From NCBI GenBank assembly GCA_947501445.1, contig CANMVS010000008.1, forward strand, positions 124,001-188,000: 64,000 bases of DNA, read 5' to 3'. Numbering within the stretch: position 1 is the stretch's first letter; every line of letters begins with the position of its first letter. A program made the translations under genes and the position numbers. The stretch comes from an uncultured Rhizobiaceae group bacterium. GTDB lineage: Bacteria > Pseudomonadota > Alphaproteobacteria > Rhizobiales > Rhizobiaceae. Positions 38,219 to 55,464 of the stretch are shown in pieces. The notes beneath the pieces were generated by a model that made no database searches, had not been told where the DNA came from, and saw only the letters and a list, made by a program, of their open reading frames with translations.

Positions 38219-40078
38219 CTATCGGATTGGCGGGTTTGGCACCGGCTCAACATTACAGATGTCAGATGCACAAGCCGGAAGATCCGGTGTGGCAATCAGC
38301 AGATCGTTGCCCTGGGTTGCTGCCTGGCCGCCAGTCTGACACGTGCCTGCGTAAATATCCCGATTTGGAAAAGGTAGACCATATCCGTCCGTCAGCGTCT
38401 CCAGAAATGCAACGATTTGATCCTCTTCTTTATCGGTCAGACCAAGGTTGCCGATTGTCGTATCCATATTGTTCGGCACTTCGGGCATCGGCCAGCAATC
38501 AACCCTTTCAGTTGTCCCCGCAGGACAATGGCCAGACGTAACAGGATAAGCATGAAGATCGCGCGTATTGTAAAAGTGAACCAGCTGTTTCAGGCTTTTG
38601 ATATAGCCATTGTGAAAGAATGCTTTCTGATAATACGGTACTGGCTCGCCATTGCCGTCAACGCGGCCTGCTTCAGTCGTCGGACACTGTTTTGGCGTCA
38701 TCGCAACATTGCGCGCTGAAACGGTCCTCATTGCTCCGTCGAAAGCCGGCGCCTTGTCGGTCCAACTGTTATTGGGATTGACGCCATTGACGTTTCTGAG
38801 AAAACTGGCGAGACCAAGATCGCGGAACCCAAACCCTGCAGCATTTGGCACAAAGCCAGTCGGATCCGGTGTTGTCTCGTAATAGAATGGCAATCTCGGA
38901 TTGAGTGGAAGGCCCAGATTCGCAAACGTAAAGTCCGTGAACAAGGGCGTCAAATCAGCAGGGTCACCGCCATCGGTTGCCCCATCCTTCAAAAGTGTTG
39001 TGGTCCCATCCAAATGGCACGAATTGCAATTCGCTTTGCCGCGAAAGAGCACGTATCCGGCCTGTTCTTCCTTGCTTAGTTGGTAATCGCCAGCCAAAAA
39101 GGCATCAAATTTGGAAGAGAAGGCATCAACGTCCGGTGAGTTTTGATAGAATGATAACGATTGACCCCAATGTTGATAAGCTGTGTTGGACTTGGCGCGG
39201 GCTTCCGGGCTCAGCGGAACCGGCGTCGGGTTATTGGCATGTGCTTGCGCACCGATCGGAATTGAGCAAACCTTTTCGGTGTCTTCCGGCCAGTGAAAAT
39301 CCAAAGAGCCTTCACCCCAAATATCCTCGAAAAGAGGGCGGTATGCGGCTTGCGACAACCGGTAGATAACGCAGGCGGTGTCGGGAAATCCCATTTCATC
39401 GGCACTAACGGGCGGATCGGTCGCCTGTTCCGCATTGGGGTTCTGTAACGCTTGGCCAGTCGCCCGGCCATCCCAAAAATTTCCGCCATAAAAGTCGCCT
39501 TGTGTTCGGTTATATTGCAGCACAGGTGAGCGTGACGCATAGGTGTAGCGCATCGGCGTGCGGACAACAGTGCGACCGTGGAACGACCCTGGATAGGCGG
39601 ACATTGTGAGATTGACGGAAGGAATGGATCCACCAAATCCAGCGTAGGGCATATGGCAGAAAGCGCAGGCCTGATTGCCACCGACTGACATTGACTCGTC
39701 ATAATTCATCAGCTCGCCAAGCAGGCTGCGTGCCTGATAGCCGTTTCCAACGATTGTTGGCGGGTTGCCGGCCCGCTTGATTGGACCAAGTGCCTTCAAT
39801 TCGTCCAGCGCGCGATTGAATGCAACACGAATTTCGGCGCGAACGCGTTCGATCTCAGCGTCAAGATCGCCTGGCAAGATCCCTGATGGATAGGGATCGT
39901 ATAGCCCGACCTGAACCGTATCGTTTGGCGTTGACGTGTCCTGAGAAGTCGCGGGAGTCGTGCTAACCGATCCCAGAATGCCGGCAACAGCAATCAAATC
40001 AAAAATTTTCCGCTTCACTCGATCCTCCAGTTGATTGTGGCTTCGCTTTGTCTGTGGCGATGCGCTTGATTGTTCCAA
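38219..40078 (-). CDS. Exported di-heme cytochrome c peroxidase/MauG-superfamily-like protein
   Basis: Two CXXCH motifs: CAFCHMPYAGFGG and CNSCHLDG; signal peptide VKRKIFDLIAVAGILGSVSTTPATSQ. Confidence 0.85.
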   Translation of the reverse strand: MEQSSASPQTKRSHNQLEDRVKRKIFDLIAVAGILGSVSTTPATSQDTSTPNDTVQVGLYDPYPSGILPGDLDAEIERVRAEIRVAFNRALDELKALGPIKRAGNPPTIVGNGYQARSLLGELMNYDESMSVGGNQACAFCHMPYAGFGGSIPSVNLTMSAYPGSFHGRTVVRTPMRYTYASRSPVLQYNRTQGDFYGGNFWDGRATGQALQNPNAEQATDPPVSADEMGFPDTACVIYRLSQAAYRPLFEDIWGEGSLDFHWPEDTEKVCSIPIGAQAHANNPTPVPLSPEARAKSNTAYQHWGQSLSFYQNSPDVDAFSSKFDAFLAGDYQLSKEEQAGYVLFRGKANCNSCHLDGTTTLLKDGATDGGDPADLTPLFTDFTFANLGLPLNPRLPFYYETTPDPTGFVPNAAGFGFRDLGLASFLRNVNGVNPNNSWTDKAPAFDGAMRTVSARNVAMTPKQCPTTEAGRVDGNGEPVPYYQKAFFHNGYIKSLKQLVHFYNTRDLHAYPVTSGHCPAGTTERVDCWPMPEVPNNMDTTIGNLGLTDKEEDQIVAFLETLTDGYGLPFPNRDIYAGTCQTGGQAATQGNDLLIATPDLPACASDICNVEPVPNPPIR

Positions 40079-40102: not shown

Positions 40103-42292
40103 CTACGGGAGAACGATTTCAATGGTCTGCATCATCCCCTGGTCTTCGTGATCAAGAATATGACAATGGATAACAAATCGGCCAATATAGCGCCGATACT
40201 TCATCCGCACCCGGATCGTGTAGGCCTCTTCGGGCGACTTCTTTGGGTTTTTGACCCAGATCGTGTCCTTCCAGACACCCTTCAATCCGGCATATTGATT
40301 ATCAATCTCACCGGTGAAATCATCGACGTTATCGGGGTCTGAAACGTCCTTACCATTCGGATCAAGTACTTCAACAATCTGGAATGGGTTGACGTGGATA
40401 TGGTGCGGATGTCCCTCCCAGGTCGAGGACAGCACCCAATCCTCCACATCGCCAAGCTTCAGGAACCGGGTATCATTTGGGTCGAATGTTTTTCCGTTGA
40501 TCTCATAGCGGACAGGATTTGTTGTAATGTCGATGTTGAAAACCACGTGTTGTGTGTGTTCTGCTTCGGCATCGAGTAGCGAGGTGTGGGCAGCGAAGGC
40601 AGCAAGGCTCAACCCGTCTTCAAGATCGTTGATGACACGAGCAACCATATCGCCCGAGATATTTTCACGAGCCGCGGTGCTGAGTGCGTCCATAAGCGCT
40701 TCGCGTTGAGTGCCTTCGGACACGTCAACACCCGCATCCACTTCGACCAGCGCCAGCAGTTCCCCGTCATGGGGTGTGGCAATGTCCATGCCGCCACCAA
40801 CCGGGTCGCGATCATCGATAAGGCAGTATCGCCCCGCCAAAGGGAAACTCACAAGTGCATCCCACCGGTAACCTGGCTGCATCACCGCATTGTCCCGCGT
40901 GCGCACACGATCCATGGTAAGGCCGTCAGCAGCAACGAGATGCAGCGGCACCCCGGGTCCGCGGCAGGCTGCGGCTATTGTATCAGCGTTGCCGCCATTC
41001 GCGCCTTGCAAAGCCGCCTCGTCGAGGGCAGCGATCTTGAGATTCACCGTATCGCGAACACCGGCATGGATCATCCGCCAGCGCTCAAACTGACCTGATA
41101 CCGCCCCCTTCAGGACCGGAAGGTTACTGCCATTGATTGACGTATGGCGTCCTGACGCATTCCACACGCCACCACCGAATGTGTTTGGACCATTCGTGTC
41201 GAGATATTGCTCGATAACGCCCACCTGCCCATCATCACAGACCCAGGCGCCAAGCGGGTCGTCCGGCGGATCGGTCTTGATCCGTCCATCTTCACCCTCG
41301 CAGGCATAGGCAAATTGTTGAAACAACATGACGCGCTCTTTGAACGGCTGACTGTCAGTCGGAAGCAAAAGCACGTCCAGATCACCAGGAAAATCATGGC
41401 CCGGCATCCGGTCTCCACGAACGATGAGCGCCCCGGCCATGCCACTGGAGACCTGCAGTGCGGTCGATCCATGTAGATGCGGGTGATACCAGAACGTGCC
41501 TGCAGGATGATCCGACGGAATAGCATACTCATGCTCGAAACTGGCACCTGGATCGAACCGCAGGAATATATTGTCGCTGTTGCCACTTGGGCTTACCCAA
41601 AGGCCGTGAACGTGCATATTTGTGCTGTTGAAGCAGTGTGGAATGTTGAGACTGTGAGCAACTGCAGTGTGACCGCCATGATCACAACTAGGGTCATTGG
41701 AGGGGAGGTCGTTGCTCAAGTGGAGCCGGAGTGTATCGCCGGGACGTGTTTCTATGGTCGGCCCAACAAGCGTTGCTGCAGTAGCTTCGCCGGCCAGGTA
41801 ACTCCGCAGGCGCACCCGATCGGCTCTTTGTGTCGAAGCATTCCACAGTCTGCTATCTCGATAATTGACTGTAAGTGCAACCTGAAGATCTTTCGAGCCC
41901 CTGACAGCGTCGAGATCCTGTGCTCCGGTCGTTCGTCCAACAATGGGTGGATTGACTAACGTTGTACCCGCTCCGCCTGTGACGGTTTGCGAAAACGAAG
42001 GCGCACCAGCGACCACCGAGCCAAACAGGAACACAACCAGTCTCAAAAAGGCTTTGCGATGTCCCACTGATTTGGCTCCGATCCGAGGAACCTGATCATC
42101 GTGGCCAGCATGTCCGGTAGGGGGAGAGTTGAATGGGGCCGCGGCTGCAAGAGTGCGAGCAGACCTTGCGATCAGAAAGATTATGCCACAAAACCAAAAC
42201 AAGAAAGTCAATTGATGGAAGCAATGACGCCATTTTGGGGTCACGTTATGATATGCACGCGCAGTCGTACAAGAAGGCATCGCAGGCCCCAC
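40103..42292 (-). CDS. Multicopper oxidase
   Basis: All four copper motifs: HVHGLWVS, FWYHPHLHGS, HPHHIHVNPFQ, HCHILDHEDQGMM. Confidence 0.93.
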   Translation of the reverse strand: MGPAMPSCTTARAYHNVTPKWRHCFHQLTFLFWFCGIIFLIARSARTLAAAAPFNSPPTGHAGHDDQVPRIGAKSVGHRKAFLRLVVFLFGSVVAGAPSFSQTVTGGAGTTLVNPPIVGRTTGAQDLDAVRGSKDLQVALTVNYRDSRLWNASTQRADRVRLRSYLAGEATAATLVGPTIETRPGDTLRLHLSNDLPSNDPSCDHGGHTAVAHSLNIPHCFNSTNMHVHGLWVSPSGNSDNIFLRFDPGASFEHEYAIPSDHPAGTFWYHPHLHGSTALQVSSGMAGALIVRGDRMPGHDFPGDLDVLLLPTDSQPFKERVMLFQQFAYACEGEDGRIKTDPPDDPLGAWVCDDGQVGVIEQYLDTNGPNTFGGGVWNASGRHTSINGSNLPVLKGAVSGQFERWRMIHAGVRDTVNLKIAALDEAALQGANGGNADTIAAACRGPGVPLHLVAADGLTMDRVRTRDNAVMQPGYRWDALVSFPLAGRYCLIDDRDPVGGGMDIATPHDGELLALVEVDAGVDVSEGTQREALMDALSTAARENISGDMVARVINDLEDGLSLAAFAAHTSLLDAEAEHTQHVVFNIDITTNPVRYEINGKTFDPNDTRFLKLGDVEDWVLSSTWEGHPHHIHVNPFQIVEVLDPNGKDVSDPDNVDDFTGEIDNQYAGLKGVWKDTIWVKNPKKSPEEAYTIRVRMKYRRYIGRFVIHCHILDHEDQGMMQTIEIVLP

Positions 42293-42390: not shown

Positions 42391-42431
42391 GTCATTGGCT
42401 CAATGTCTCAAGTTTGTTGTTTCTGCGTCTC
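42391..42431 (-). promoter_or_regulatory. 41-bp regulon motif, site 1 (upstream of multicopper oxidase operon)
   Basis: GAGACGCAGAAACAACAAACTTGAGACATTGAGCCAATGAC, then 17 nt to GATACC. Confidence 0.82.
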
Positions 42432-42468
42432 TGATAGAGCAAACGAGCACCGTTGGGTTGGTCGGAAT

Positions 42469-42509
42469 GAGACGGAGCAGCAACGAAGTTGAGATGCCCG
42501 GCCAATGAC
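42469..42509 (+). promoter_or_regulatory. 41-bp regulon motif, site 2 (upstream of Cys-rich pair E1-E2)
   Basis: GAGACGGAGCAGCAACGAAGTTGAGATGCCCGGCCAATGAC. Confidence 0.82.
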
Positions 42510-42662
42510 ACGTTTTAGTGTCCGCATTATGCTTCCAGCACCTTTTGTCCTACTGAAGAGCGACGGTCGCACGTTCAATCGAATAGGAAAGGTTTTTCTC
42601 ACGCTTTGCGTAGGAGAATTGCCGTAGTAGCGCGAGCCTCGACCAGAACGGAGTTGTAATTG

Positions 42663-43001
42663 ATGGATGTTCAACACGCAATTCGGGCAGCATGTATCAG
42701 CGTTTTGTTTTTGTTGGGTATCGCGGGCGCTGCCACTGCAAATTCAATCCAAACCTTCGTTTGCAAAAGCCCTACCTGCACGAAAACATTCCACAATGCC
42801 AAAGGCCCGGAGGCCTCGCTTGAAGCTTATTGCGAATCAAGTACCGGAGAGATTAAAAGGCCGAGCTCTCTAACATGCTCAACACCTGCAGTATTCGCAA
42901 TTTGCAACGTGATGTCCATATCAGTTTCTCCAAAAAACAGCCTGGTTTGCGTGTGTTTCCGTAAGAAGGAGATGACATTCAAGTCAACGATTAGGTGTTA
43001 G
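42663..43001 (+). CDS. Small exported Cys-rich protein, subfamily E (E1)
   Basis: Signal peptide; SIQTFVCKSPTCTKTFHNAKGPEASLEAYCE...SLTCSTPAVFAIC...CVCFRKKEMTFKSTIRC; 8 Cys in mature part; paralog of next CDS. Confidence 0.8.
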   Translation: MDVQHAIRAACISVLFLLGIAGAATANSIQTFVCKSPTCTKTFHNAKGPEASLEAYCESSTGEIKRPSSLTCSTPAVFAICNVMSISVSPKNSLVCVCFRKKEMTFKSTIRC

Positions 43002-43045
43002 TAGACAGCGCGCTGAGAGAATTTGGACAGAACGGAGTATATCAA

Positions 43046-43366
43046 GTGAAAATTCGAAGAATATTTCATGTTGCATGTGTCGCTATATTCGCGATCTGCG
43101 GAATGGCGGGTCATGGATACTCAGATTCAATTTATACGTTTGTCTGCAAGAAGACAAAATGCGAAAAAACGTTCAAAAAAGCCAAGGGGCCGGCAGTTCA
43201 AATCGCGGCATTTTGCGAATTGCAGGCTGGAAAAGAGCAAAGATCAAAATCAATAACATGCACAACGCCTGCTGTTTTTGCAGGATGTCAGACATTCGGT
43301 GCAACAGCATCATGTACGTGCGGGAGAAAAACAAGGATGACTATTAAGGTGGCGGTAACGTGCTAG
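43046..43366 (+). CDS. Small exported Cys-rich protein, subfamily E (E2), GTG start
   Basis: VKIRRIFHVACVAIFAICGMAGHGYSDSIYTFVCKKTKCEKTFKKAKGPAVQIAAFCELQAGKEQRSKSITCTTPAVFAGCQTFGATASCTCGRKTRMTIKVAVTC. Confidence 0.8.
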   Translation: MKIRRIFHVACVAIFAICGMAGHGYSDSIYTFVCKKTKCEKTFKKAKGPAVQIAAFCELQAGKEQRSKSITCTTPAVFAGCQTFGATASCTCGRKTRMTIKVAVTC

Positions 43367-43390
43367 CAGCCTGCTAGAACCTGGTGCGGA

Positions 43391-43467
43391 TCAGGATTAC
43401 GGTGTCAGCCTTTGGTCTTGTCAATGCATTCAGGTTCTACCGATTCCTTCAGAGCCTGAATTGCGCC
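43391..43467 (+). repeat. RIME-like repeat, degenerate copy 6
   Basis: TTACGGTGTCAGCC...GTCAATGCATTCAGGTTCTACCGATTCCTTCAGAGCCTGAATTGCGCC. Confidence 0.78.
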
Positions 43468-43561
43468 GGTAGGTGAATGTGATGGAGTTGAGGTGTCTGA
43501 TTCCAGATGGAACAGATTTTGCAACATTTACATCAGCCGGAGACCGGCAAAATCATATGCC

Positions 43562-44728
43562 TTATCTCGGTCCGAGAATTATTGTCGGATTGTCAGGCAG
43601 TTGTTCCTGGGCGGTATTGAGAGTCTGGAGATCTTTGACGATGGTCAATGCGCGATAACTGAAATCATTTTCTGGCGCTCCCAGTTCCTGTTGGCGTATC
43701 CAGTAGACCCGGTTGTCAATTTTTGCCGAGATTGAACCGCGACCCATGCGCGAGCCAGCTTCGACCTTGAAGATTGGAACACTGCGTCCGTTTCGCGTCG
43801 TCAGCGTAGGGGTCCATGGATCTTCTCGAGCAAACTGATCTCTCACGATCTCTCCTAAAAAGTGAATGATCCCGTTTGGCGAACGAAGTGTTAGGCCGGT
43901 GCCCTGTGCATTAAACAGACTGCGGCCAACAAGGCCGGTGCGGGTGAAGCTAATATCAACCTTTCCATCCTCGTTGCCTTCGACCTTTGCGTTGGTGATT
44001 GACAGGGCCTCAGAAAATGCTCTGAATTGCGTATATGTGCACCTGCTCGTGGCATCATTGCTCAGCTTAACGAGAATGTCGGTCCCGGAGTAGCGCGATT
44101 GTTGGTCAACTTTGGCTGAATGTCGATCAATTTTGCAAGTGATCTCCCCAAATGAATTCTCAAAGTTCTGGCATATTCCGCGATGTGCGCTGGAAAGCGT
44201 TTGATATCGTTTTTTGCAAATGTCGTGTGCGCTGAACACAACATCATTATAATCATCGAGTGTTACAACGATTGCTTTTACGAGCAACGACATCAGCAGG
44301 TGGATGTGGGCTCCATCACGGCTTTCGATTAGAAACGCAAAAAGTTGCGGCGTTACCTGAGTATGCATTGCCCGCGTAAAATCCCGAGTTTCGAGCGAGG
44401 ATGCGTTTGCACTTCTATCGCGACCGACATTTGCCGAAAGGCTTGCGTTGAGCGGCGACCATGATGACGCGTCGAGCGGTATGTTGGCACTGCCCGATGG
44501 CGACAAACCAACAGATGTTCCCGCAGAGTAATCACCCAGCACCGAATAGTAATTCGGGTAGCCCTTGGCGGATCGGATGACATTGGTGAGAAGCAGGTTG
44601 TTTGATGCCTGTTCGAGACCAACATTGTAGTAAACACCGCTGCTGCCTACCATGTTTTGGCATCCGGCAAGTATCAAGGACGCGAAAGCCAAACCGATCA
44701 GGTTAGCGGATGCCATGCCGACTCTCAT
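43562..44728 (-). CDS. Putative outer-membrane lipoprotein, uncharacterised
   Basis: LIGLAFASLILAGCQNMVGSSGVYYNVGLEQASNNLLLTNVIRSAKGYPNYYSVLGDYSAG; lipobox LAGC. Confidence 0.8.
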   Translation of the reverse strand: MRVGMASANLIGLAFASLILAGCQNMVGSSGVYYNVGLEQASNNLLLTNVIRSAKGYPNYYSVLGDYSAGTSVGLSPSGSANIPLDASSWSPLNASLSANVGRDRSANASSLETRDFTRAMHTQVTPQLFAFLIESRDGAHIHLLMSLLVKAIVVTLDDYNDVVFSAHDICKKRYQTLSSAHRGICQNFENSFGEITCKIDRHSAKVDQQSRYSGTDILVKLSNDATSRCTYTQFRAFSEALSITNAKVEGNEDGKVDISFTRTGLVGRSLFNAQGTGLTLRSPNGIIHFLGEIVRDQFAREDPWTPTLTTRNGRSVPIFKVEAGSRMGRGSISAKIDNRVYWIRQQELGAPENDFSYRALTIVKDLQTLNTAQEQLPDNPTIILGPR

Positions 44729-45075
44729 TTTTTTATTGTACATTCAAATGCTCTTTCAACCTGGGTTCCACGCTCACGGCAATGCTCGGCCAGCCGGTTG
44801 AACATCGACCCGGATGCGAAAATTGCTCTTCCTCATCATCTACCGGCAGTCGCTCAGCTCAAACTCGGCAAAATGGCAATGTTCCCGAGTACCCAGAAAG
44901 GAATGGATAGTGGGGACTCAAAAAAGCAAGGCTGCTGATGGTGTTTTGATCGATAGCCTCCGTTCCCATCCCTACGACCAATAAATCAGCACGCACTGAA
45001 GAACGACCGGCCGTTTTGCAGCCACAGTCCATCAGTAGAAATCTGTATGAGTATTAGCCCGTCAATGCCGTGGCT

Positions 45076-45116
45076 GTCATTGGCTCTGCATCTCAAGTTT
45101 GTTGTCGCTTTGTCTC
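45076..45116 (-). promoter_or_regulatory. 41-bp regulon motif, site 3 (upstream of lipoprotein gene)
   Basis: GAGACAAAGCGACAACAAACTTGAGATGCAGAGCCAATGAC, then 17 nt to GCTAATAC. Confidence 0.85.
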
Positions 45117-45192
45117 GTACGGTCGGTGTGGACAGCTCTGAAATTCAGGTCGAAATGTTATCCAATGCTGGTGACCCAAGCTGGGGTATGCA

Positions 45193-46272
45193 TCACAGCC
45201 GATGCTGGCGCATCCAGTGATGAATGAGGTGCTGTTTGCCGCCGACAGCCTTTGCGTTTGACGGCACAGCACCCATCGCCAGGCAATCATTTGGCGCTAT
45301 ATCGAACCGTTGACGAAAACGGCGATGGAAATTGCTTGCATCAATGTAGCCCCATCGGGAGGCGACGGACTTGACCAGACCACGGGCTGGCGCAGCCGCG
45401 CACAGCTCAAGCAGGCACCGGTCGAGGCGACGCCCAGAGATATAATGCTCAACGCCTCCGTCCTCACGGAACCGGCGATAAAGCGAGGCACGTGAAAGAC
45501 CGAAGTGCCTGCACAAATTTGCCGTATTCAGGTCAGGATCGGCCAAGTGCGTTTCGATATGGTCGCGCATTGCGAGATTCAAAGTGGCTTCAGTATTTTG
45601 TAGAACTGTGTCCTCCTTGCGTCCAAGCAGAAACCTCTGAATCAGACCGGCGAATCCATAGGAGAGATCCTCTATCTCCTGCAAATCGCCATCAGCATGC
45701 ACTGTATCGAGTGCGTCCAATGCTGTTTCCAGCAAACGCGCTTGCGGTTTTGAACGCGGGAGCGAAACATAATGCGGATCTCGCGATGGATCATACCCGA
45801 CAAAGTCATGTGGAATCAGAACACCGTTGCCAACAACATCTGTAGTCGATGTCGTGTAGCATTGCGACATATCGATCAAATGAAGTTTTCCCTCATTTAT
45901 CTCTGTTGCAATATCGCCGACAACGCCGCGTCCCTCGCCTTTGGCATAGCGTTCAAAAAGGAGGTAGTTGCAATCGAATTCGTTGATCTTTTTCGGATCG
46001 CGGGACAATACCAGCGGCGTAAACCGTACCTTGGTGATGATGAGCCGACTGGCTAATTGAAAGTCAGCCTCTGCGGAAAACTGCTGCGGTTCTGTCTTGA
46101 TACGAACATCGTAGAATGCACGTCCCAAGTCACGCCATTCTTCCAGTGAATACTGCGACACTGCATTGTTCCCCAAAACGTGCAACTTCTCATTCGAGCA
46201 TAAAGTTTTTTCCAGCAAGAGTCCATTTACTGCAATCTCCACTTGGCGGAGCAGCACCGATTTGAAGAACAT
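45193..46272 (-). CDS. AraC family transcriptional regulator (candidate regulator of the locus)
   Basis: NTANLCRHFGLSRASLYRRFREDGGVEHYISGRRLDRCLLEL...VASRWGYIDASNFHRRFRQRFDIAPNDCLA. Confidence 0.92.
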   Translation of the reverse strand: MFFKSVLLRQVEIAVNGLLLEKTLCSNEKLHVLGNNAVSQYSLEEWRDLGRAFYDVRIKTEPQQFSAEADFQLASRLIITKVRFTPLVLSRDPKKINEFDCNYLLFERYAKGEGRGVVGDIATEINEGKLHLIDMSQCYTTSTTDVVGNGVLIPHDFVGYDPSRDPHYVSLPRSKPQARLLETALDALDTVHADGDLQEIEDLSYGFAGLIQRFLLGRKEDTVLQNTEATLNLAMRDHIETHLADPDLNTANLCRHFGLSRASLYRRFREDGGVEHYISGRRLDRCLLELCAAAPARGLVKSVASRWGYIDASNFHRRFRQRFDIAPNDCLAMGAVPSNAKAVGGKQHLIHHWMRQHRL

Positions 46273-46464
46273 ATTTCCGTTTGTGTATGAGAATACTTAT
46301 CATACCGGGAACGGGGAGCCCTTATTCCGCAGCACCTCGGGCACAGATTGTTGCGTTGGCGAGAGCGTACGAAGTGTTGGATGGCTTGCACTGGAGTTCG
46401 ATCCGCACTTGGCACTCGCCCATGGCTGGGTGAAACGGCCAAGCTCAACGTGGCCAGCAATGCT

Positions 46465-46505
46465 GAGACGAACCGACAATAAACTTGAGACATTCACCCA
46501 ACGAC
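46465..46505 (+). promoter_or_regulatory. 41-bp regulon motif, site 4 (upstream of A1)
   Basis: GAGACGAACCGACAATAAACTTGAGACATTCACCCAACGAC, then 16 nt to GCTACGAT. Confidence 0.85.
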
Positions 46506-46611
46506 AGGCCAAGCATCCTTTGCTACGATCACGCTAATTGCCGTTGTAATCATGAAGATGGCCTGAAGCATTCACTACCCATGACCCGAATTGCAACTAG
46601 AGGATTATAGG

Positions 46612-46986
46612 ATGAAGACAACCCCTGTCATTTTAAGCCTCGCAATCATCGGCTTCAACCTCGCGGCGGCGACAATTTCGCCCGGGCCGGCCAATGCAGC
46701 TATAACAAAATACGACTGCACGAGCGGCTCGTGCAGCTACCGATATACACAGAAGCCTATGGGAACGCGCGAGTATCGGGGATTTTGTTATGGACATGTC
46801 CCGAAGTATGTCACTGGTTCAGCTAAAGGAAAACAGAAATGTACAGCAGGCAAAAGCCCAATGACATGTACAGTTACTGCTTATACGGTTAGCTATGACT
46901 ACGGGCACGGCAGCTGTTCGTGCACAAATTGGAGTCTGACCAAAAAAATAGATGCGAAAATTGAGTTATTATGCCCTGATGGCTGA
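46612..46986 (+). CDS. Small exported Cys-rich CTNW protein, subfamily A (A1)
   Basis: Signal peptide; ITKYDCTSGSCSYRYTQKPMGTREYRGFCYG...SPMTCT...SCSCTNWSLTKKIDAKIELLCP; 8 Cys. Confidence 0.85.
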   Translation: MKTTPVILSLAIIGFNLAAATISPGPANAAITKYDCTSGSCSYRYTQKPMGTREYRGFCYGHVPKYVTGSAKGKQKCTAGKSPMTCTVTAYTVSYDYGHGSCSCTNWSLTKKIDAKIELLCPDG

Positions 46987-47416
46987 GGTCAGTCTGCCTC
47001 ATAGAGACTGACGCGACAAGATTGCAGCCATCACGGTTGGGATCCGTGGGACCAACAAGACCCTTGGACGGTTCGGCTGCCCGATGGCCATTCAAACGAA
47101 TCGGTCCAAAAAATTGAACATAATTGTCGAGCAAGATCACAGGTATATCATACGACGCGTTCGACCGTTTTGCGGTCTTAAATCTTCCTGATCGGCATCA
47201 GCCACGTTGGAGGGCATCAGGGTCGCCAACATGATCCGCAAGGGACAACTGGGCTCTGCACTTTACGGGCACAAGCAGTTCGCGGCACCTGCAGGTTAAA
47301 TCTGTCCGAAGATTGGGCCGCTCTGACTTGTGCAATATTCACAGCAGAATCCTTCTGAAAGTTCACTCAAATGGAGAATGCTGATTGAAGACCGGCGATG
47401 ATGGAGAATAACCGCG

Positions 47417-47836
47417 ATGATGATCGATACCAATCGAATGCGTGCCGCTACGGTGCGAATTGCACTGGTGAGTTTCGTATCTGCCGGGCTCGCCGGACCC
47501 ATGTCTGTTGACGTGATTGCCAGCCCGGTCAAGTGGACCTGCAACTGCATTGCCTCTGGGCCGAATAAGACGGATACCTGCAAGTGTAAGAATCGATCCT
47601 ACGACCTGCCAAAATCCGGAACCAAAACATTTCGTGCTACATGCAAGGGTTGGGTGGACGGGGCGCCCTCAATGAGGTTGAGTCCGTCTTTTGTTGATGT
47701 CATGAGAGGTAAGAACGTCACGTGCACGATCTCATCGAATTTCAATTGGGGTTTTGTATCAAAGCAATGCACAAACTGGGGCACATCAAACAGAAACAAG
47801 GTCACCATGTCGATTCAATGCCGTGGACCGGACTAA
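47417..47836 (+). CDS. Small exported Cys-rich CTNW protein, subfamily B (B1)
   Basis: Signal peptide; VKWTCNCIASGPNKTDTCKCKNRSYDLPKSGTKTFRATCKGW...GKNVTCT...KQCTNWGTSNRNKVTMSIQC. Confidence 0.85.
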   Translation: MMIDTNRMRAATVRIALVSFVSAGLAGPMSVDVIASPVKWTCNCIASGPNKTDTCKCKNRSYDLPKSGTKTFRATCKGWVDGAPSMRLSPSFVDVMRGKNVTCTISSNFNWGFVSKQCTNWGTSNRNKVTMSIQCRGPD

Positions 47837-48003
47837 CAGGGGCTTACGAAAATCCGGTCGGCAATCGTAGAGATTGCATCGGGCTTCTTCGCATCGACCC
47901 GCAACTTCCGGATTCACTGCGACCCAGCTCGGCCGGCAGGGGAGTTCGACGAAAATACGAATTTGAACCTGGTGATGGTGCCGAAATAATGTTCGAAGCA
48001 CAT

Positions 48004-48104
48004 GGACTGTTTCACGTTTTGCCGAAAACCGGATAACGGTGTCGGCTTTTGACTTTGTTGATGTATTCAGGTTTTGCCGCACCCGTCAAAACCTGAATTG
48101 CTCT
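48004..48104 (+). repeat. RIME-like repeat, copy 7
   Basis: GGACTGTTTCACGTTTTGCCGAAAACCGGATAACGGTGTCGGC...GTTGATGTATTCAGGTTTTGCCGCACCCGTCAAAACCTGAATTGCTC. Confidence 0.9.
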
Positions 48105-48453
48105 AAGGACACTTGATTTGGATCTTCGCATCGACTTTCTTGGTCACGCTCCAGTTGGTACAAGAACAGCTTTCGTATTTTCCAGGCGTCCAGACCGAAG
48201 TGCAGGTCATCGGTTTCTTTCCGGGAGTGCAAGTTGAACCACCTTTATAAGACGGTGATCCATAGTTGCTTGGGTTTTTTCCGTAGCACTTGTTGCGATA
48301 TTCCCTTGTCCCCATCGGTTTTTGTGTGTACCGGTAGTTGCATTGGGCCGCTTCGCAGTTGTAGTTTTTGTACGCTGCGTGGGCCGTGGTATTGGCAATA
48401 ACAGCGGCGGCAAAACCGAGAACCATTACATAAATCTTCACATCACTCTCCAT
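48103..48453 (-). CDS. Small exported Cys-rich CTNW protein, subfamily A (A2)
   Basis: YKNYNCEAAQCNYRYTQKPMGTREYRNKCYGKN...KPMTCTSVW...SCSCTNWSVTKKVDAKIQIKCP. Confidence 0.85.
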   Translation of the reverse strand: MESDVKIYVMVLGFAAAVIANTTAHAAYKNYNCEAAQCNYRYTQKPMGTREYRNKCYGKNPSNYGSPSYKGGSTCTPGKKPMTCTSVWTPGKYESCSCTNWSVTKKVDAKIQIKCP

Positions 48454-48569
48454 GGGGTTTGCCAGACGCGTTCGGCTTGATGTATCTGCCTCAACCGAGA
48501 CACGCGTCGGCGTTTGATCGGATGCCCTGCCGGCTTAAATCCAAACAGAACCGGAAAGAACCGCCGTCG

Positions 48570-48989
48570 CTAGTAGCCATAGCCGCTGCATTGCAGCGAC
48601 ATTTTCACTGGATTCCTCTGTGCCGTGCCCCAGTTTGTGCATTGTTTCTGACGATAGTCCGGATGATTTGAACCCGCCGTACAGGTTACATTTTTACCCC
48701 TGAGTACATTCGTGAATTTCGCAACGGTTCTTTTGCTCGGATCCCCCTTGACGCCACCTTTGCAGTAGCCGCGGAACGTCATGGTACCTGATCGTGGCAG
48801 ATCATAGGAATAACCATCACAGGTGCAGTTGTATTTCGTTTCGGTGCCGGGAACCACGCAGTTGCACGTCCAGCGAACCGGGGCAGCAGTTGCGTTTCCC
48901 GACATGGGCACCACAAGGCCAATAAGCGCGAAACTCAGAAGCGTGAATCGTGCAGATAAATGGCAGAATCCTATGGTGGTGTTACTCAT
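48570..48989 (-). CDS. Small exported Cys-rich CTNW protein, subfamily B (B2)
   Basis: APVRWTCNCVVPGTETKYNCTCDGYSYDLPRSGTMTFRGYCKGGVKGDPSKRTVAKFTNVLRGKNVTCT...KQCTNWGTAQRNPVKMSLQC. Confidence 0.85.
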   Translation of the reverse strand: MSNTTIGFCHLSARFTLLSFALIGLVVPMSGNATAAPVRWTCNCVVPGTETKYNCTCDGYSYDLPRSGTMTFRGYCKGGVKGDPSKRTVAKFTNVLRGKNVTCTAGSNHPDYRQKQCTNWGTAQRNPVKMSLQCSGYGY

Positions 48990-49088
48990 TGTTGTTGCAC
49001 TCCTGTCATTCTTATCTCGATATTTGGTGAAGTGGGATTCACCGGATCCGGTGCCGTAACGCACACTCAAGAATTCAGTGTCGATCTG

Positions 49089-49460
49089 CTAACACGTCAG
49101 TTTGATGGTGATTGTATCTTTCTTGGCTACGGACCAGTTGGTGCAGGATCGCGTTTTATAAGTTCCATATTTGCCCTGACCGGTGTACCAAATTGTACAA
49201 GTCGTATTTTTACCCTTCTTCGGAAAATCAATGAGAGGTAAACGGCCGTTACCCGAGTCACAAACACCGCGGATTTCCTTGGTTGCGAGCTTGCCTAAAG
49301 TCCAGTTATGAGTGCACGAGGATTGCTTGCAATTGTACAATTGATAGGTAGCAGCCATCGCAGGATTGCCGCCGCCAATTGCGGAAAGAAAATAGACCGC
49401 GACTGCACCGAACAAGATCGTGGTCGACAGCGGCAGGAAATCTCTGACTGAGGTGTTCAT
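49089..49460 (-). CDS. Small exported Cys-rich CTNW protein, subfamily D
   Basis: TYQLYNCKQSSCTHNWTLGKLATKEIRGVCDSG...GKNTTCTIWYTGQGKYGTYKTRSCTNWSVAKKDTITIKLTC; 6 Cys. Confidence 0.82.
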   Translation of the reverse strand: MNTSVRDFLPLSTTILFGAVAVYFLSAIGGGNPAMAATYQLYNCKQSSCTHNWTLGKLATKEIRGVCDSGNGRLPLIDFPKKGKNTTCTIWYTGQGKYGTYKTRSCTNWSVAKKDTITIKLTC

Positions 49461-49476
49461 CTCATTTGTTTCCTTT

Positions 49477-50160
49477 TTACTCGGCGGCAAAGCCGTCTAG
49501 ATACCGTTCGATGTCGCCATAAATCGGATTGTTGTCCTCATCTTGAATCACAACCCAATATTGGCCGCCCGTCTCGTCTTGCCCCTCTGCTTCTTCTTCT
49601 TGAGACGGCAGATCACTCAAATAAAGAAAACCGGAGTCATGGTGTTTGTAGAGAGAGGCACAGCTCAAGTCGCCCATGGTTCCCAGGCATAGGGCGCCGT
49701 CCTCACCGATCGTCCAGTTTGGAGGAAATTGCGGTCCGCTCGCCACAAAGTCACCGTCCTTCAGGGGGCTTTCCAGCCAAACATGCGCACGATTGGGTTG
49801 ATTGCCGAAGCACAACACCAGGAACTGCACATCTTCTGTGTTGAATGTCTTGAGAATATCGCTCCAACCTTGGGTGAGCGCAACGTCATCATAATTTTCG
49901 GGAAGAGATTCTTCGGAAAAACTGCCGATCAACACGCATTTTTCATACAGGTGCGAAGCACTTATACGCTCGAGCGGCGCTCCTGTATCATGGATCAAGC
50001 TCGCCTGTTCCGTCCCACCCTGTACCGCTTCATCGCCACCGGCTTTTTCCTGGGCAAGCACAATGGATGTCCCTGTTGCAATCATGGCAACAGTTGCGAT
50101 TGCTCCAAACCGCAGTCCATATTTTATCCTTGCGGTCCTGTGGGTGATCGATTTCATCAA
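49477..50160 (-). CDS. Exported acidic protein, subfamily C (C1), uncharacterised
   Basis: Signal peptide; HDTGAPLERISASHLYEKCVLIGSFSEESLPENYDDVALTQGWSDILKTFNTEDVQFLVLCFGNQPNRAHVWLE...; paralog at 51434. Confidence 0.8.
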   Translation of the reverse strand: MMKSITHRTARIKYGLRFGAIATVAMIATGTSIVLAQEKAGGDEAVQGGTEQASLIHDTGAPLERISASHLYEKCVLIGSFSEESLPENYDDVALTQGWSDILKTFNTEDVQFLVLCFGNQPNRAHVWLESPLKDGDFVASGPQFPPNWTIGEDGALCLGTMGDLSCASLYKHHDSGFLYLSDLPSQEEEAEGQDETGGQYWVVIQDEDNNPIYGDIERYLDGFAAE

Positions 50161-50315
50161 ACTTTCCTTCCAAATCTGTGACGAGCGGTTTGATTCAGTT
50201 TTGCGGTTTGGAATCCAGAGGCAGTAACCATCAAAAGCATACCAAATTCATCATTTGCGCGTTTCATGGTTCGAAAAAGATCCGCGCCCCTGTTTAGCAG
50301 GTGGGTGCGCAGTGC

Positions 50316-50356
50316 GTCATTGGCGCTGCGTCTCAAGTTTGTGGTCATCTGGTTCC
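50316..50356 (-). promoter_or_regulatory. 41-bp regulon motif, site 5 (upstream of C1-D-B2-A2)
   Basis: GGAACCAGATGACCACAAACTTGAGACGCAGCGCCAATGAC, then 17 nt to GCTAAACA. Confidence 0.83.
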
Positions 50357-50442
50357 GCGCGCCGAGACAATTCTTGATTTCAATCTATGGGCGGTTGGAT
50401 ATTCGCGCCGCCGTGCATGATTGCGCTTCAGTCCACCGCTTT

Positions 50443-50544
50443 GGAGTAATTCAAGTTTTGACGGGATAGGCAAAACCTGAATGCATCAACAAAATCAAAG
50501 AGCAAAACCGTTATCCCGTTTCTGACAAAACGTGAAACGGTCTG
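50443..50544 (-). repeat. RIME-like repeat, copy 8
   Basis: GAGTAATTCAAGTTTTGACGGGATAGGCAAAACCTGAATGCATCAACAAAATCAAAGAGCAAAACCGTTATCCCGTTTCTGACAAAACGTGAAACGGTC. Confidence 0.9.
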
Positions 50545-50812
50545 GTGGACGGACCATCCTTGGATATTCGCCCGTATTGGGACTTGTACAGTTGTGATCG
50601 GCAGAGAATTCGTCGATTGATGTCAAACTGCGGTGGCGGCTTTTTCCTGCGATCCTTCAAATAGAAAATTCAGGACTGTGACCGTGTTCGTTCCATATGG
50701 CATCCTGGTTCGACCAAAGGCGTTCAAGCGCAATCTTCTGTCTTGGGAAATCTATTCGAGCGTAATTGCTCAAATCTCCTTGAAGGGAGTAGGCAAGTTG
50801 CCGCGAAGCGCT

Positions 50813-50853
50813 GATACGGAACGACAACAAGTTTGAGATGATGCGCCAACGAC
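50813..50853 (+). promoter_or_regulatory. 41-bp regulon motif, site 6 (upstream of A3-C2-B3psi)
   Basis: GATACGGAACGACAACAAGTTTGAGATGATGCGCCAACGAC, then 17 nt to GCTAAAGT. Confidence 0.85.
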
Positions 50854-50979
50854 GAGCCCGGTGCCCATATGCTAAAGTACAGGCAGTATTCGATAATATT
50901 ACGGGGCCATTTCTTTCGAAGCGACACTTGCGTGAATAAGCCGTGGTTCGTCGGCTCGGAGCCACAAAAGGAAGTTGTA

Positions 50980-51321
50980 ATGAAATTTTCCGCTCTCATT
51001 CTATCCTGCGCCGCCTTGGTAGCCACGAATATTCCCGCAAATTCCGCAGTAACGAAGTACGACTGCAAATCAGAACAATGTAACTATCGCTATAGCCAAA
51101 AGCCGATGGGAACACGAGAGTATTGGAGCCAGTGCGTCGGGAAAAATATTGATTATACCAGGCATGCCGGGCGCGCGAGTTGCCAATCGTCGGTCAAACC
51201 TATGACCTGTACGGTATCAATCTCAAAATGGTCGGGTTACGATTCATGCTCTTGTACGAACTGGAGCCTGACAAAAAAGGTAGACGCAAAGATAAGTATT
51301 CACTGTCCTCGCCTTCCATAG
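50980..51321 (+). CDS. Small exported Cys-rich CTNW protein, subfamily A (A3)
   Basis: VTKYDCKSEQCNYRYSQKPMGTREYWSQCVGKN...KPMTCTVS...DSCSCTNWSLTKKVDAKISIHCP. Confidence 0.85.
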   Translation: MKFSALILSCAALVATNIPANSAVTKYDCKSEQCNYRYSQKPMGTREYWSQCVGKNIDYTRHAGRASCQSSVKPMTCTVSISKWSGYDSCSCTNWSLTKKVDAKISIHCPRLP

Positions 51322-51433
51322 AATTGCGCGAAGGCGAAACTGGGATAAAACAATTACAGCGCAAATATCACGGCTGAGTTATGATTTGTCAGGCTGAAAG
51401 CAGGTTGGTTTCCACGCGCAGAAAGGAATCTGG

Positions 51434-52111
51434 ATGATATCGGACACCGGCAAGTCGTCGTCTAATCACAGATTCAAACTTGGATCCATTGTAACAGCGG
51501 CCATGATCGCGTTAGGCTCACCCCCAGTAGCGGCTCAGGATAACACGTCGCGCGATGGCGTTGCACAGAATGCGGTCAAACCGGATACCTTGAAACACGA
51601 TACCGGAGCGCAGCTCGATCAGATTGATGCATCCCATCTTTATGAAACATGTATTTTGATCGCTGATTTTTCGGAAGGTGTTATGCCCGATGACTATGAT
51701 GACGTGGCGATCGCCAGTGGTTGGGAAGGAATCCTCAAAGCGTTCAACACTGAGGATGTGCAATTTCTGGCGTTATGCTTTGGCAATCAACCCAACCGCG
51801 CACATGTCTGGCTGGAAACCCCCTCGGAGAACGGTGATTTCGTGGCAAGCGGGCCACAGTTTCCACCGAACTGGACGATAGGCGACGATGGTACCTTGTG
51901 CCTTGGAACTTTGGGTTCCATGAGTTGTGTAACACTCTTCAAGCACCACGGTTCCGGCTTGCTTTATCTGAGCGATCCAACGTCTGAAGACGAAACCCTG
52001 GAAACTGAAGATGAGAAAGGTGGCGAATATTGGGTCATGCTCCAGGAGGAAGACGGCACATCGCTTTTCGCCGATATTGAACATCACCTGGATGGCAGGT
52101 TGGCCGAGTGA
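51434..52111 (+). CDS. Exported acidic protein, subfamily C (C2), uncharacterised
   Basis: Paralog of 49477-50160: HDTGAQLDQIDASHLYETCILIADFSEGVMPDDYDDVAIASGWEGILKAFNTEDVQFLALCFGNQPNRAHVWLETPSENGDFVASGPQFPPNWTIGDDGTLCLGT. Confidence 0.8.
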   Translation: MISDTGKSSSNHRFKLGSIVTAAMIALGSPPVAAQDNTSRDGVAQNAVKPDTLKHDTGAQLDQIDASHLYETCILIADFSEGVMPDDYDDVAIASGWEGILKAFNTEDVQFLALCFGNQPNRAHVWLETPSENGDFVASGPQFPPNWTIGDDGTLCLGTLGSMSCVTLFKHHGSGLLYLSDPTSEDETLETEDEKGGEYWVMLQEEDGTSLFADIEHHLDGRLAE

Positions 52112-52147
52112 CCTTTGGTTCGCTCAAAAGACAATAAGCCTACATCA

Positions 52148-52560
52148 ATAACGAAGACCACCAGATAATTTTGCCATTTATCTGCACGAATTGCGCTTCT
52201 GAGTTTCGCGTTCATCGGGTTCGGTTTGCCGATGTCGGTCACCACAATTGCTGCCCCGGTTCGCTGGCTTTGCAAATTCGAAATTTCTGGAAAGTCAGGA
52301 ATCTATTCTTGCAATTGCCCGTTTTTCTGCAGCCTGCCAAAGCCAGGTCCGAAAACTTTCGCGGCTGCTGTGATGGTAAAGTAAAAGGGTTCCCTGACAA
52401 GCAAGGGAGCCCCACATTCATTTACGCTACTGGGTAGCAATCTTGGGAGGCCCGGCAATAGGCCAGCAATTGGTATGTCTACCGACAATGCACCAGTTGG
52501 GGCGCAGTCCAGCGAAACAGCGTTTCGATGAATGTTGAATGCCATGGGCCGGAACATTAA
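52148..52560 (+). pseudogene. Decayed subfamily B Cys-rich gene (B3psi)
   Basis: Frame 1: HLSARIALLSFAFIGFGLPMSVTTIAAPVRWLCKFEISGKSGIYSCNC...LPKPGPKTF; shifted frame: FRGCCDGKVKGFPDKQG; final segment RQCTSWGAVQRNSVSMNVECHGPEH*. Matches B2 segment by segment, with start loss, an in-frame TAA and frameshifts. Confidence 0.85.
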
Positions 52561-52775: not shown

Positions 52776-53672
52776 TCAGAATTTCCAGTTACGTGCCTTG
52801 GAAATGAGAAAATCACGGAAAGCCTTTAACTTGGCAGAGCCGCGCAATTCTTCCGGGTAGCAGAAAAAACACGAGAAGGACGGCACGTCGGAATCGATAT
52901 CCAATTGCACCAGACCGGCATCATGGCCAACCATATAATCCGGCAGCATGGCAATGCCTATGCCCAGTTGCGTTGCCCGTTTGATGGACGGCATATTGTT
53001 GATCTGTAGCTGTGGTGCCCGTGGATTATTGGCTGTGCGGCCGGCGACTTCCAGCCAGTTGACATCAAGCAGGTAATTGGGCGCTGGTTCACCGAAAGTG
53101 ATAATGCGGTGATTGTCGAAATCACCCACATGTTCGGGTTTGCCGTAACGGTTGAGGTAGGATGGTGCTGCATAGACGTGCATGTGAACTGTAAAGAGTT
53201 TACGCTGAATAAGATCGGGTTGCTGCGGTTGGCGAAGCCGAATAGCGCAATCGGCATGGCGCATCGTCACATCAAGCTCTTCATTGTCGAGCAGCAATTG
53301 CACTTCGATGTCCGGGTAGAGTTCAGTAAATTCCTGCATTCGGTCTGTCAGCCAGCCCGACCCCAGTCCCACGGTTGTGGTTACGCGAAGTTTGCCGGAG
53401 GGCGTGTCCGTGGTCTCGGAAAGACGAACCCGAACAGCCTCAAGCTTGAGCAGCACATCATGGGCCGTGCGATAGAGAAGCTCTCCCTGCTCGGTCATGA
53501 TCAGGCCGCGCGCATGGCGGTGAAACAGCGGAATGCCGATATCCTGTTCCAGGGCGCTGACCTGTCGTGAGATCGCCGATTGGGACAGATGGAGTTTCTC
53601 GGCTGCATGGGTAAATGACCCGGCTTCCGCTGCCGCGTGAAAAATACGCAACTTATCCCAATCCAGAGGCAT
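52776..53672 (-). CDS. lsrB: LysR family transcriptional regulator (LsrB/VtlR-like)
   Basis: MPLDWDKLRIFHAAAEAGSFTHAAEKLHLSQSAISRQVSALEQDIGIPLFHRHARG...; position next to trxB-lrp as in rhizobial lsrB/vtlR loci. Confidence 0.85.
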   Translation of the reverse strand: MPLDWDKLRIFHAAAEAGSFTHAAEKLHLSQSAISRQVSALEQDIGIPLFHRHARGLIMTEQGELLYRTAHDVLLKLEAVRVRLSETTDTPSGKLRVTTTVGLGSGWLTDRMQEFTELYPDIEVQLLLDNEELDVTMRHADCAIRLRQPQQPDLIQRKLFTVHMHVYAAPSYLNRYGKPEHVGDFDNHRIITFGEPAPNYLLDVNWLEVAGRTANNPRAPQLQINNMPSIKRATQLGIGIAMLPDYMVGHDAGLVQLDIDSDVPSFSCFFCYPEELRGSAKLKAFRDFLISKARNWKF

Positions 53673-53726: not shown

Positions 53727-54692
53727 CTATTCAGCGGCAGCAGCGACCGGTTCCAGCGCCGCCAGATAGTGCTCCGCCTCAAGGGCGGCCATACAGCCCA
53801 TACCGGCAGCCGTGACCGCCTGACGGTAAATATCGTCGGTTACATCGCCAGCAGCATACACACCGGCGACATCCGTTGCGGTTGAATCGGCAGCGGTCCA
53901 CAAATACCCGTTTGGCTTCTGTTTCAGTTTGCCTTTAAACAGAGAGACAGAAGGTGCATGGCCGATTGCAATGAATACACCATGTGTCGCCAATTGTGAC
54001 ACGTCCCCGGTTTTCAGGTTTTTCAGCCGCACACCGGTAACAGATGGAGGTTTTGTTTCTTCGCCGGTGATTTCCTCAAGCTGGCTATCCCAGATGATGT
54101 CGACATTGTCCTTAGCCAGCAGGCGTTGCTGCAGAATCTTTTCTGCCCGAAGACTGTCGCGTCTGTGTACAAGTGTGACCTTTGCCGCCAGATTGGACAG
54201 ATAGAGCGCCTCTTCGACGGCTGTATTGCCACCGCCTACGACGACGACTTCCTTGCCGCGATAGAAAAATCCATCGCAGGTCGCACAGGCTGAAACGCCA
54301 AAACCCATAAATGTCTGTTCTGTCTCAATCCCCAACCATTTGGCCTGGGCGCCGGTGGCGATAACAAGCGAGTCACAGGTATATTCCTGACCTGAATCGG
54401 TTTTGAGACGGAACGGACGAACATCCAGATCCACCTCTGTCACAAGATCATTGACAATGTCAGCGCCGACATTCTGAGCCTGCTGGAGCATTTGCTCCAT
54501 CATCCAGGGTCCCTGAACTGTTTCAGCGTATCCGGGATAATTTTCCACATCCGTGGTGATCATTAATTGACCACCTTGCTCCATACCGGCAATCAAAACT
54601 GGTTCCAGCAATGCGCGTGCGGCGTAAATTGCCGCTGTGTATCCTGCGGGTCCTGAACCGATGATCAGGACACGTGCATGGCGGGTTGTCAT
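53727..54692 (-). CDS. trxB: Thioredoxin-disulfide reductase
   Basis: RVLIIGSGPAGYTAAIYAARALLEPVLIAGMEQGGQLMITTDVENYPG...CATCDGFFYRGKEVVVVGGG. Confidence 0.96.
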   Translation of the reverse strand: MTTRHARVLIIGSGPAGYTAAIYAARALLEPVLIAGMEQGGQLMITTDVENYPGYAETVQGPWMMEQMLQQAQNVGADIVNDLVTEVDLDVRPFRLKTDSGQEYTCDSLVIATGAQAKWLGIETEQTFMGFGVSACATCDGFFYRGKEVVVVGGGNTAVEEALYLSNLAAKVTLVHRRDSLRAEKILQQRLLAKDNVDIIWDSQLEEITGEETKPPSVTGVRLKNLKTGDVSQLATHGVFIAIGHAPSVSLFKGKLKQKPNGYLWTAADSTATDVAGVYAAGDVTDDIYRQAVTAAGMGCMAALEAEHYLAALEPVAAAAE

Positions 54693-54966
54693 AGTCGGAT
54701 TTCCTTTATTGCTGCAAATTGCAAACGTGCCACTCACCTTTCACAAGGTGTGTTGTGTGGCATTTGGCCCAATGTACGTAGTCGTACAAGTCACTTTCAA
54801 GTGGATAGAGGCATTTTCACACAGCTGTGCACCATTCACGTCACGAACCAGCAATATGGCTGTCATGATTGTCAAGCGTGCGAAATTATCTTGCGCGTAC
54901 GCGCAACAACTGATCCTATGTTCTGATGTAATGCGTCGCCAGCGGCTAACCGGGAATCTGTCCAAC

Positions 54967-55464
54967 ATGCCTATTCGTATGGAACTTGATGATATTGACC
55001 TGAAAATACTTCGGGAACTGCAGCGCGACGGGCGCATCACCAATGTTGACCTTTCTGAGCGTGTGGGGATATCAGCACCGCCCTGTTTGCGGCGATTGCG
55101 CAAACTGGAGGAAGCCGGGATCATTGAAGGTTACAGGGCGATGCTCAATGGACCGTCGCTTGGATTTGATCTCGTTGCATTCTGCATGATTGGTCTGACC
55201 CTGCAGTCCGAGGTTAACCTGCGCGCTTTTGCGGACAGGACACTTGAATGGCCGATTGTTCGTCAATCCTGGATGGTGTCGGGCGAATCGGATTTTCTGT
55301 TGCACTGTGTGGCAAGAGATCTTCTGACGTTTCAGGATTTCGTTATTGATCAACTGACTGCGGCAGAAAATGTCGACACAGTGCGAACCATGTTGACCAT
55401 TCGCCAGATCAAGAATGAAGGTGCCATTGATATGTCAGGGGCACCCGCTTCGCATCAACCCTGA
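54967..55464 (+). CDS. lrp: Lrp/AsnC family transcriptional regulator
   Basis: MELDDIDLKILRELQRDGRITNVDLSERVGISAPPCLRRLRKLEEAGIIEGYRAML. Confidence 0.93.
   Translation: MPIRMELDDIDLKILRELQRDGRITNVDLSERVGISAPPCLRRLRKLEEAGIIEGYRAMLNGPSLGFDLVAFCMIGLTLQSEVNLRAFADRTLEWPIVRQSWMVSGESDFLLHCVARDLLTFQDFVIDQLTAAENVDTVRTMLTIRQIKNEGAIDMSGAPASHQP

What the first reader, a model, noticed from the sequence alone, without database searches (positions are those of the whole stretch)
42391..50853. Six-site gapless 41-bp promoter motif defines a local regulon around an AraC gene
Six intergenic sites align without gaps over 41 bp in the direction of the downstream gene: consensus GAGAC-N5-GACAACAAACTTGAGAYGNNGNGCCAATGAC. 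Sites: 42391-42431(-), 42469-42509(+), 45076-45116(-), 46465-46505(+), 50316-50356(-), 50813-50853(+). Each precedes a different transcription unit: MCO/di-heme peroxidase, E1-E2, lipoprotein, A1(-B1), C1-D-B2-A2, A3-C2-B3psi. At least four sites are followed 16-17 nt later by a GCTA(A/C) -10-like hexamer, so the terminal AATGAC/AACGAC would be the -35. The upstream conserved block would then be a class-II activator site. An AraC-family gene (45193-46272) is in the middle of the locus and is the obvious candidate activator. All genes with the site encode exported proteins.
Basis: partly seen in the sequence, partly recalled or inferred. Interest (0 to 1): 0.93.

Follow-up and report, generated by a model that had tools for sequence, protein, structure and literature searches.

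The report
AraC-type regulator's direct-repeat operators
Six near-identical 41-base switches in front of genes for exported proteins are paired docking sites, most likely for the regulator encoded among them, because the same kind of site sits beside close relatives of that regulator in other bacteria; this is a new but ordinary kind of bacterial gene circuit controlling an unusual family of small secreted proteins.

Summary
The six sites exist exactly as described and are not chance. They share 72% identity against about 26% in their flanks. A genome-wide scan of 6.8 Mb finds only these six plus one more. The seventh lies beside the closest paralogue (48-50% identity) of the AraC protein, on contig C7.

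The C7 site has three half-sites. The proximal half runs into a TTGACA-like -35. This is the layout of an AraC/XylS dimer at a class-II promoter.

Comparative data tie the site to this AraC. In coral-skeleton MAGs, five AraC copies (40-43% identical) each carry a related site 145-159 bp upstream of araC, pointing away from it, as in the window (193 bp). In one held-out genome the two best genome-wide hits are two of these. The box CAAY of the window clade becomes GCAY in both half-sites of every MAG site. AraC homologues outside this clade lack the site.

It is a new operator/regulon of a known kind. The small Cys-rich exported proteins it controls form an undescribed, rare family.

The parts
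42391..42431 (-). Operator 1: distal half-site 42413-42431, proximal half-site 42391-42409; -35 ATGACA, -10-like GATACC; drives MCO and di-haem genes
42469..42509 (+). Operator 2: half-sites 42469-42487 and 42491-42509; -35 ATGACA, -10-like TATGCT; drives E1-E2
45076..45116 (-). Operator 3: half-sites 45098-45116 (distal) and 45076-45094 (proximal); -35 ATGACA 45075-45080, -10 GCTAAT 45053-45058; drives the lipoprotein gene; lies just after the araC stop codon
46465..46505 (+). Operator 4: half-sites 46465-46483 and 46487-46505; 193 bp upstream of the araC start, pointing away from araC; drives A1. Positional counterpart of the sites in the coral MAGs
50316..50356 (-). Operator 5: half-sites 50338-50356 (degenerate first block GGAAC) and 50316-50334; -10-like GCTAAA; drives C1-D-B2-A2
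50813..50853 (+). Operator 6: half-sites 50813-50831 and 50835-50853; -10-like GCTAAA; drives A3-C2-B3 remnant (A3 probably starts at the internal ATG near 50980)
45193..46272 (-). araC-family regulator gene, the candidate that binds all six operators
   Evidence: PF12833 41.5 bits (cut-off 33.6); nearest NCBIfam equivalog FeaR 88.6 bits, below its 199 cut-off; clade tree
40103..42292 (-). multicopper oxidase gene (HxH and HCHxxxH copper-ligand motifs present); true start may be internal
38219..40078 (-). MauG/CCP-like di-haem protein gene, two CxxCH motifs; same unit as MCO (about 25-nt gap)
42660..43366 (+). E1 and E2, small exported Cys-rich proteins, same family as A/B/D
43562..44743 (-). 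lipoprotein (LAGC lipobox); 57% identical homologue inside a Cys-rich gene array of relative G003
46591..47836 (+). A1 (46591-46986) and B1 (47417-47836), small exported Cys-rich proteins
48103..50160 (-). A2, B2, D (Cys-rich) and C1, one operon behind operator 5
50869..52111 (+). A3 (Cys-rich) and C2 (60% identical to C1)
52145..52548 (+). B3 remnant: two fragments of the Cys-rich family interrupted by stops and a frame change

Best explanation
Each 41-bp site is a dimeric operator of the AraC/XylS kind: two 19-bp half-sites, consensus GRGACG-N6-CAAYRA, in direct repeat at 22 bp (two helical turns), the promoter-proximal half running into a weak TTGAC-like -35. The AraC-family protein encoded at 45193-46272 (and probably its paralogue on C7) binds as a tandem dimer, each subunit placing its two HTHs in the two boxes of one half-site, and activates transcription by contacting RNA polymerase at the -35 (class II). 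It thereby switches on six units together: the multicopper oxidase and di-haem pair, the units of small Cys-rich exported proteins with C1/C2, and the lipoprotein. Shown by sequence: sites, repeat, spacing, rarity, linkage and co-variation with this AraC clade. Inferred: binding, activation, the start sites and the signal.
For: Sites exact and conserved against random flanks. Direct repeat at 22 bp: 60/114 matches against about 31 at other offsets; column-shuffle p 0.00015, or 0.0017 over offsets 18-24. The C7 site shows the half-site three times, at 24 and 22 bp. Genome-wide only the six plus C7, which sits about 190 bp past the stop of the AraC paralogue whose first recognition helix (SRASLYRRFR) is identical. 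Model R2 in held-out genome G414: its two best hits are 145-158 bp upstream of two AraC paralogues; a third copy has the site too. Same position and orientation in L096, L097 and in the window. Box 2 is CAAY in both halves of the window sites (one half-site CCAC) and GCAY in both halves of all five MAG sites. Site-bearing AraCs are in one 100/100 clade; AraCs outside it are at background. The -35 matches TTGACA at 3-5 of 6, with -10-like hexamers 16-18 nt on.
Against: No binding, TSS or expression data. The -10 hexamers are weak (3-4 of 6). L096/L097 lack a -10 at the right distance, with TATAAC only 12 nt on. R2 E-values for the G414 sites are modest alone (0.019, 0.12). C7 has no recognisable target gene after its site. 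In G003 the related Cys-rich genes lack this motif, so the gene family is not always under it. G002_C44, placed next to the window pair (support 83/78), shows no site.
Confidence: 0.82

Rival explanations
1. The sites belong to the AraC clade but the protein acts as a repressor (blocking the -35) or as both, rather than as a class-II activator.
For: The proximal half-site overlaps the -35, which would also block RNA polymerase; no expression data.
Against: Weak -35/-10 hexamers suggest a promoter that needs help; tandem half-sites next to the -35 are the usual activator layout in XylS/Pm (PMC5481539).
Confidence: 0.1
2. The site is bound by the C7 AraC paralogue (or by both paralogues), not mainly by the local AraC.
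For: 48-50% identity with an identical first recognition helix; C7 has its own linked site.
Against: The local AraC is surrounded by six sites; one of them holds the same place relative to araC as in the other genomes.
Confidence: 0.25
3. Another regulator (LysR at 52776-53672, the Lrp-like protein encoded near 54637-55464, or a sigma factor) recognises the motif.
For: They lie within 10 kb.
Against: The motif is a direct repeat, not the dyad expected for LysR or Lrp; it is too long for a sigma promoter; it tracks AraC genes in four genomes, including C7 where AraC is the only regulator gene noted next to the site.
Confidence: 0.04
4. Neutral copies of one duplicated segment or a small mobile repeat.
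For: A, B, C and E genes are paralogues, so duplication did happen here.
Against: Flanks are random (25-27%) while the 41-mers are 72% identical; sites precede unrelated genes; no copies elsewhere; the site is kept at about 40% AraC identity.
Confidence: 0.02

Closest known systems
XylS/Pm (AraC/XylS family, TOL plasmid)
   Same: Two direct repeats, each of two boxes read by two HTHs, next to and overlapping the RNA polymerase site; a dimer forms on DNA (PMC5481539).
   Different: Boxes are TGCA-N6-GGTA in 15-bp repeats there; here GRGACG and CAAY (or GCAY) in 19-bp repeats at 22 bp. One promoter there, six in one locus here.
MtlR/PmtlE of Pseudomonas fluorescens (AraC/XylS family)
   Same: Tandem similar 15-bp blocks (-72 to -58 and -50 to -36, 22 bp apart) over at least 37 bp next to the -35 (PMC4514859).
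   Different: Sequence unrelated; single sugar operon; signal known (mannitol).
FeaR (AraC family)
   Same: Nearest named NCBIfam model to the window AraC, match over residues 59-329.
   Different: 88.6 bits, well below the 199 cut-off; the genes controlled are unrelated.

Membership tests
AraC/XylS-family transcription factor | C-terminal domain with two helix-turn-helix motifs | tested here: met
   PF12833 41.5 bits (cut-off 33.6), PF00165 36.3 bits (cut-off 26.6); PDB AraC-family chains matched
AraC/XylS-type class-II operator | Two half-sites in direct repeat about two helical turns apart | tested here: met
   22-bp repeat, p 0.00015; three half-sites at C7
AraC/XylS-type class-II operator | Proximal half-site overlaps or abuts the -35 | tested here: inconclusive
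   -35-like ATGACA etc. at the end of all six with -10-like hexamers 16-18 nt on; start sites not mapped
AraC/XylS-type class-II operator | Site linked to and co-varying with its regulator in other genomes | tested here: met
AraC/XylS-type class-II operator | Binding by, and activation through, the regulator | not testable with these tools
   needs EMSA/DAP-seq and expression data
FeaR | Score above the NCBIfam FeaR equivalog cut-off | tested here: not met
   88.6 bits against 199
XylS/Pm operator | TGCA and GGTA boxes | tested here: not met
   boxes are GRGACG and CAAY/GCAY

The most novel reading that the evidence does not exclude
The regulon is a single export-and-maturation programme: the co-regulated multicopper oxidase and MauG-like di-haem enzyme oxidise residues (for example the conserved CTNW tryptophan or the cysteines) of the small exported Cys-rich proteins, a family expanded to 86 matches in a coral-skeleton relative, and one AraC clade governs such surface and secreted proteins across coral-associated Alphaproteobacteria.
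Probability: 0.08. Interest if true: 0.8.

Novelty: new member of a known kind. Interest (0 to 1): 0.5.

Why it matters
It gives an uncharacterised AraC clade a specific, testable recognition code (GRGACG plus CAAY or GCAY, in tandem) with a natural specificity switch between two sub-clades. It also links a wholly unannotated family of small Cys-rich exported proteins, expanded in a coral-skeleton bacterium, to a lipoprotein, a multicopper oxidase and a di-haem enzyme. That makes the function of this exported set approachable through one regulator.

Tried and rejected
Looked for the motif before the 86 Cys-rich matches of G003: absent; the repeated upstream words there are coding sequence of the neighbouring array gene or duplicated leaders. 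Looked for sites beside more distant AraC homologues (Hoeflea poritis, Nitratireductor, Flavimaribacter, Roseibium, G002, G003): background only. A 200-genome family scan gave one extra hit (G081, E 0.003), which lies inside a predicted ORF without an AraC within several kb. Solved structures for the Cys-rich family: no sequence match; the AlphaFold model (pLDDT 77) gives only weak PliG-like fold matches at E 0.065 or worse, not used. PHROGs and plasmids: nothing. A neutral-duplication origin of the sites was rejected on flank identity.

Full report
CHECK OF THE OBSERVATION. The six 41-bp sites are at the given coordinates and strands, align without gaps, and 19 of 41 columns are invariant. 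Leave-one-out PWMs score each site 33-55 bits while nothing else in the window exceeds 8.4. Identity is 72% inside the sites and 25-27% in the 60 bp upstream. In the whole genome (6.82 Mb, 110 contigs; the window is C8:124001-188000) a profile of the six returns exactly them, then one more site on contig C7 at E 2.3e-5, then nothing better than E 0.19. In 200 genomes of the same family only the own genome and one hit in a predicted ORF were found.

WHAT THE SITE IS. The motif matches itself at an offset of 22 bp: 60 of 114 positions against about 31 at other offsets; shuffling alignment columns reaches this with p 0.00015, or 0.0017 allowing any offset from 18 to 24. It is therefore a direct repeat of two 19-bp half-sites, GRGACG-N6-CAAYRA. 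The C7 site confirms the unit independently: it has three half-sites, at 24 and 22 bp. The last five bases plus the next one form a -35-like hexamer (ATGACA, ACGACA, ATGACG, ACGACG; TTGACG at C7), followed 16-18 nt later by -10-like hexamers of 3-4 matches out of 6. Tandem half-sites running into the -35 are the layout of AraC/XylS dimers at class-II promoters, as described for XylS/Pm (PMC5481539) and MtlR (PMC4514859).

WHICH PROTEIN BINDS IT. The protein at 45193-46272 is an AraC-family regulator (PF12833, PF00165), not a FeaR by the curated cut-off. Its closest paralogue in the genome (48-50%, C7:321814-322776) is the one with the seventh site, about 190 bp after its stop codon; the first recognition helix is identical and the second nearly so. 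The next relatives are in coral-skeleton MAGs (titles; the paper PMC9868349 names samples of this set). L096 and L097 (42%) carry a related direct repeat, 23 bp apart, 153-154 bp upstream of araC on the opposite strand. Such half-site pairs occur only four times in 1.57 Mb of strand-positions, and two of the four are these.

A second model (R2, from the six, C7, L096 and L097) was run on genome G414, which was not used to build it: its two best hits in 4.3 Mb lie 158 bp and 145 bp upstream of two AraC paralogues of this clade (E 0.019 and 0.12), and a third copy has the site at 159 bp. The window has the same arrangement: operator 4 is 193 bp upstream of araC and points away from it. Within L095/L143 the sites are 71-83% identical while flanks are 38-57%. 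The second box reads CAAY in both half-sites of the window sites (one half-site reads CCAC) and GCAY in both half-sites of all five MAG sites: a parallel change, as expected if both halves are read by one evolving protein. In a tree of 20 AraC proteins the seven site-bearing ones fall in one 100/100 clade of eight; the eighth, G002_C44, and all others tested have only background scores.

WHAT IT CONTROLS. The six units encode a multicopper oxidase with its copper-ligand motifs and a MauG-like protein with two CxxCH motifs, a lipoprotein, C1/C2, and eight small exported Cys-rich proteins (A1-3, B1-2, D, E1-2) that form one family with six invariant cysteines. The family reached no Pfam cut-off, and the members tested matched no NCBIfam (A1, E2) or PHROGs (A1) model and no plasmid (A1). 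It occurs in 2 of 398 genomes of the bacterial family and in 1 other of 385 of the class, but G003, a coral-skeleton Rhizobiaceae MAG, gives 86 matches. There two AraC homologues lie among Cys-rich genes, a 57% homologue of the lipoprotein lies inside an array, and a MauG homologue lies between Cys-rich genes. In Hoeflea poritis and G005 more distant AraC homologues are divergent from a multicopper oxidase operon. In the coral MAGs the sites point at a giant DUF4347-like secreted protein, a conserved 270-aa protein and a sulfotransferase-like gene (names by inspection). The common theme is exported or surface proteins, though the last two were not shown to be exported.

MECHANISM AND LIMITS. 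Best reading: the AraC-type protein binds each operator as a tandem dimer and activates six promoters at once. Sites, repeat, rarity, linkage and co-variation are shown; binding, activation, TSSs and the inducing signal are inferred. The C7 paralogue may share the sites. G003 shows that the exported family need not be under this operator. Repression cannot be excluded by sequence.

VERDICT. It is a new operator and regulon of a known kind; the unusual part is the exported protein set.

Noticed in passing
G003 (MAG PL25b_bin.41), e.g. L063 3255-16973, L075, L078: 86 matches to the small exported Cys-rich family in one genome, many in tandem arrays and at contig ends; an undescribed expansion in a coral-skeleton bacterium.
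   Followed up: partly
L019 7700-8190 (contig C7): A Flp-pilin-like gene (7913-8089 +) flanked by an inverted repeat (about 35 bp seen at each end) where the target gene of the C7 site would be expected; looks like an insertion.
   Followed up: no
L097 (JANQQD010000130.1): Contig titled Anaerolineae but near-identical to an alphaproteobacterial MAG locus (L096): probably a binning error.
   Followed up: no
L095 3-1343 (-): Start of a giant exported protein (LEPRFMFD motif, DUF4347-like) behind a site of this AraC clade, cut by the contig end.
   Followed up: no
L096 8832-9635 (-) and L143 425-1249 (-): Homologous roughly 270-aa proteins with a Gly/Ala-rich hydrophobic segment, divergent from araC behind the site; the L096 protein matches no Pfam model.
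   Followed up: partly
L027 5516-6478 (+): LuxR-type regulator gene beside two AraC homologues and Cys-rich genes in G003.
   Followed up: no
window 52145-52548 (+): Remnant of a further Cys-rich gene (B3) with internal stops and a frame change.
   Followed up: partly
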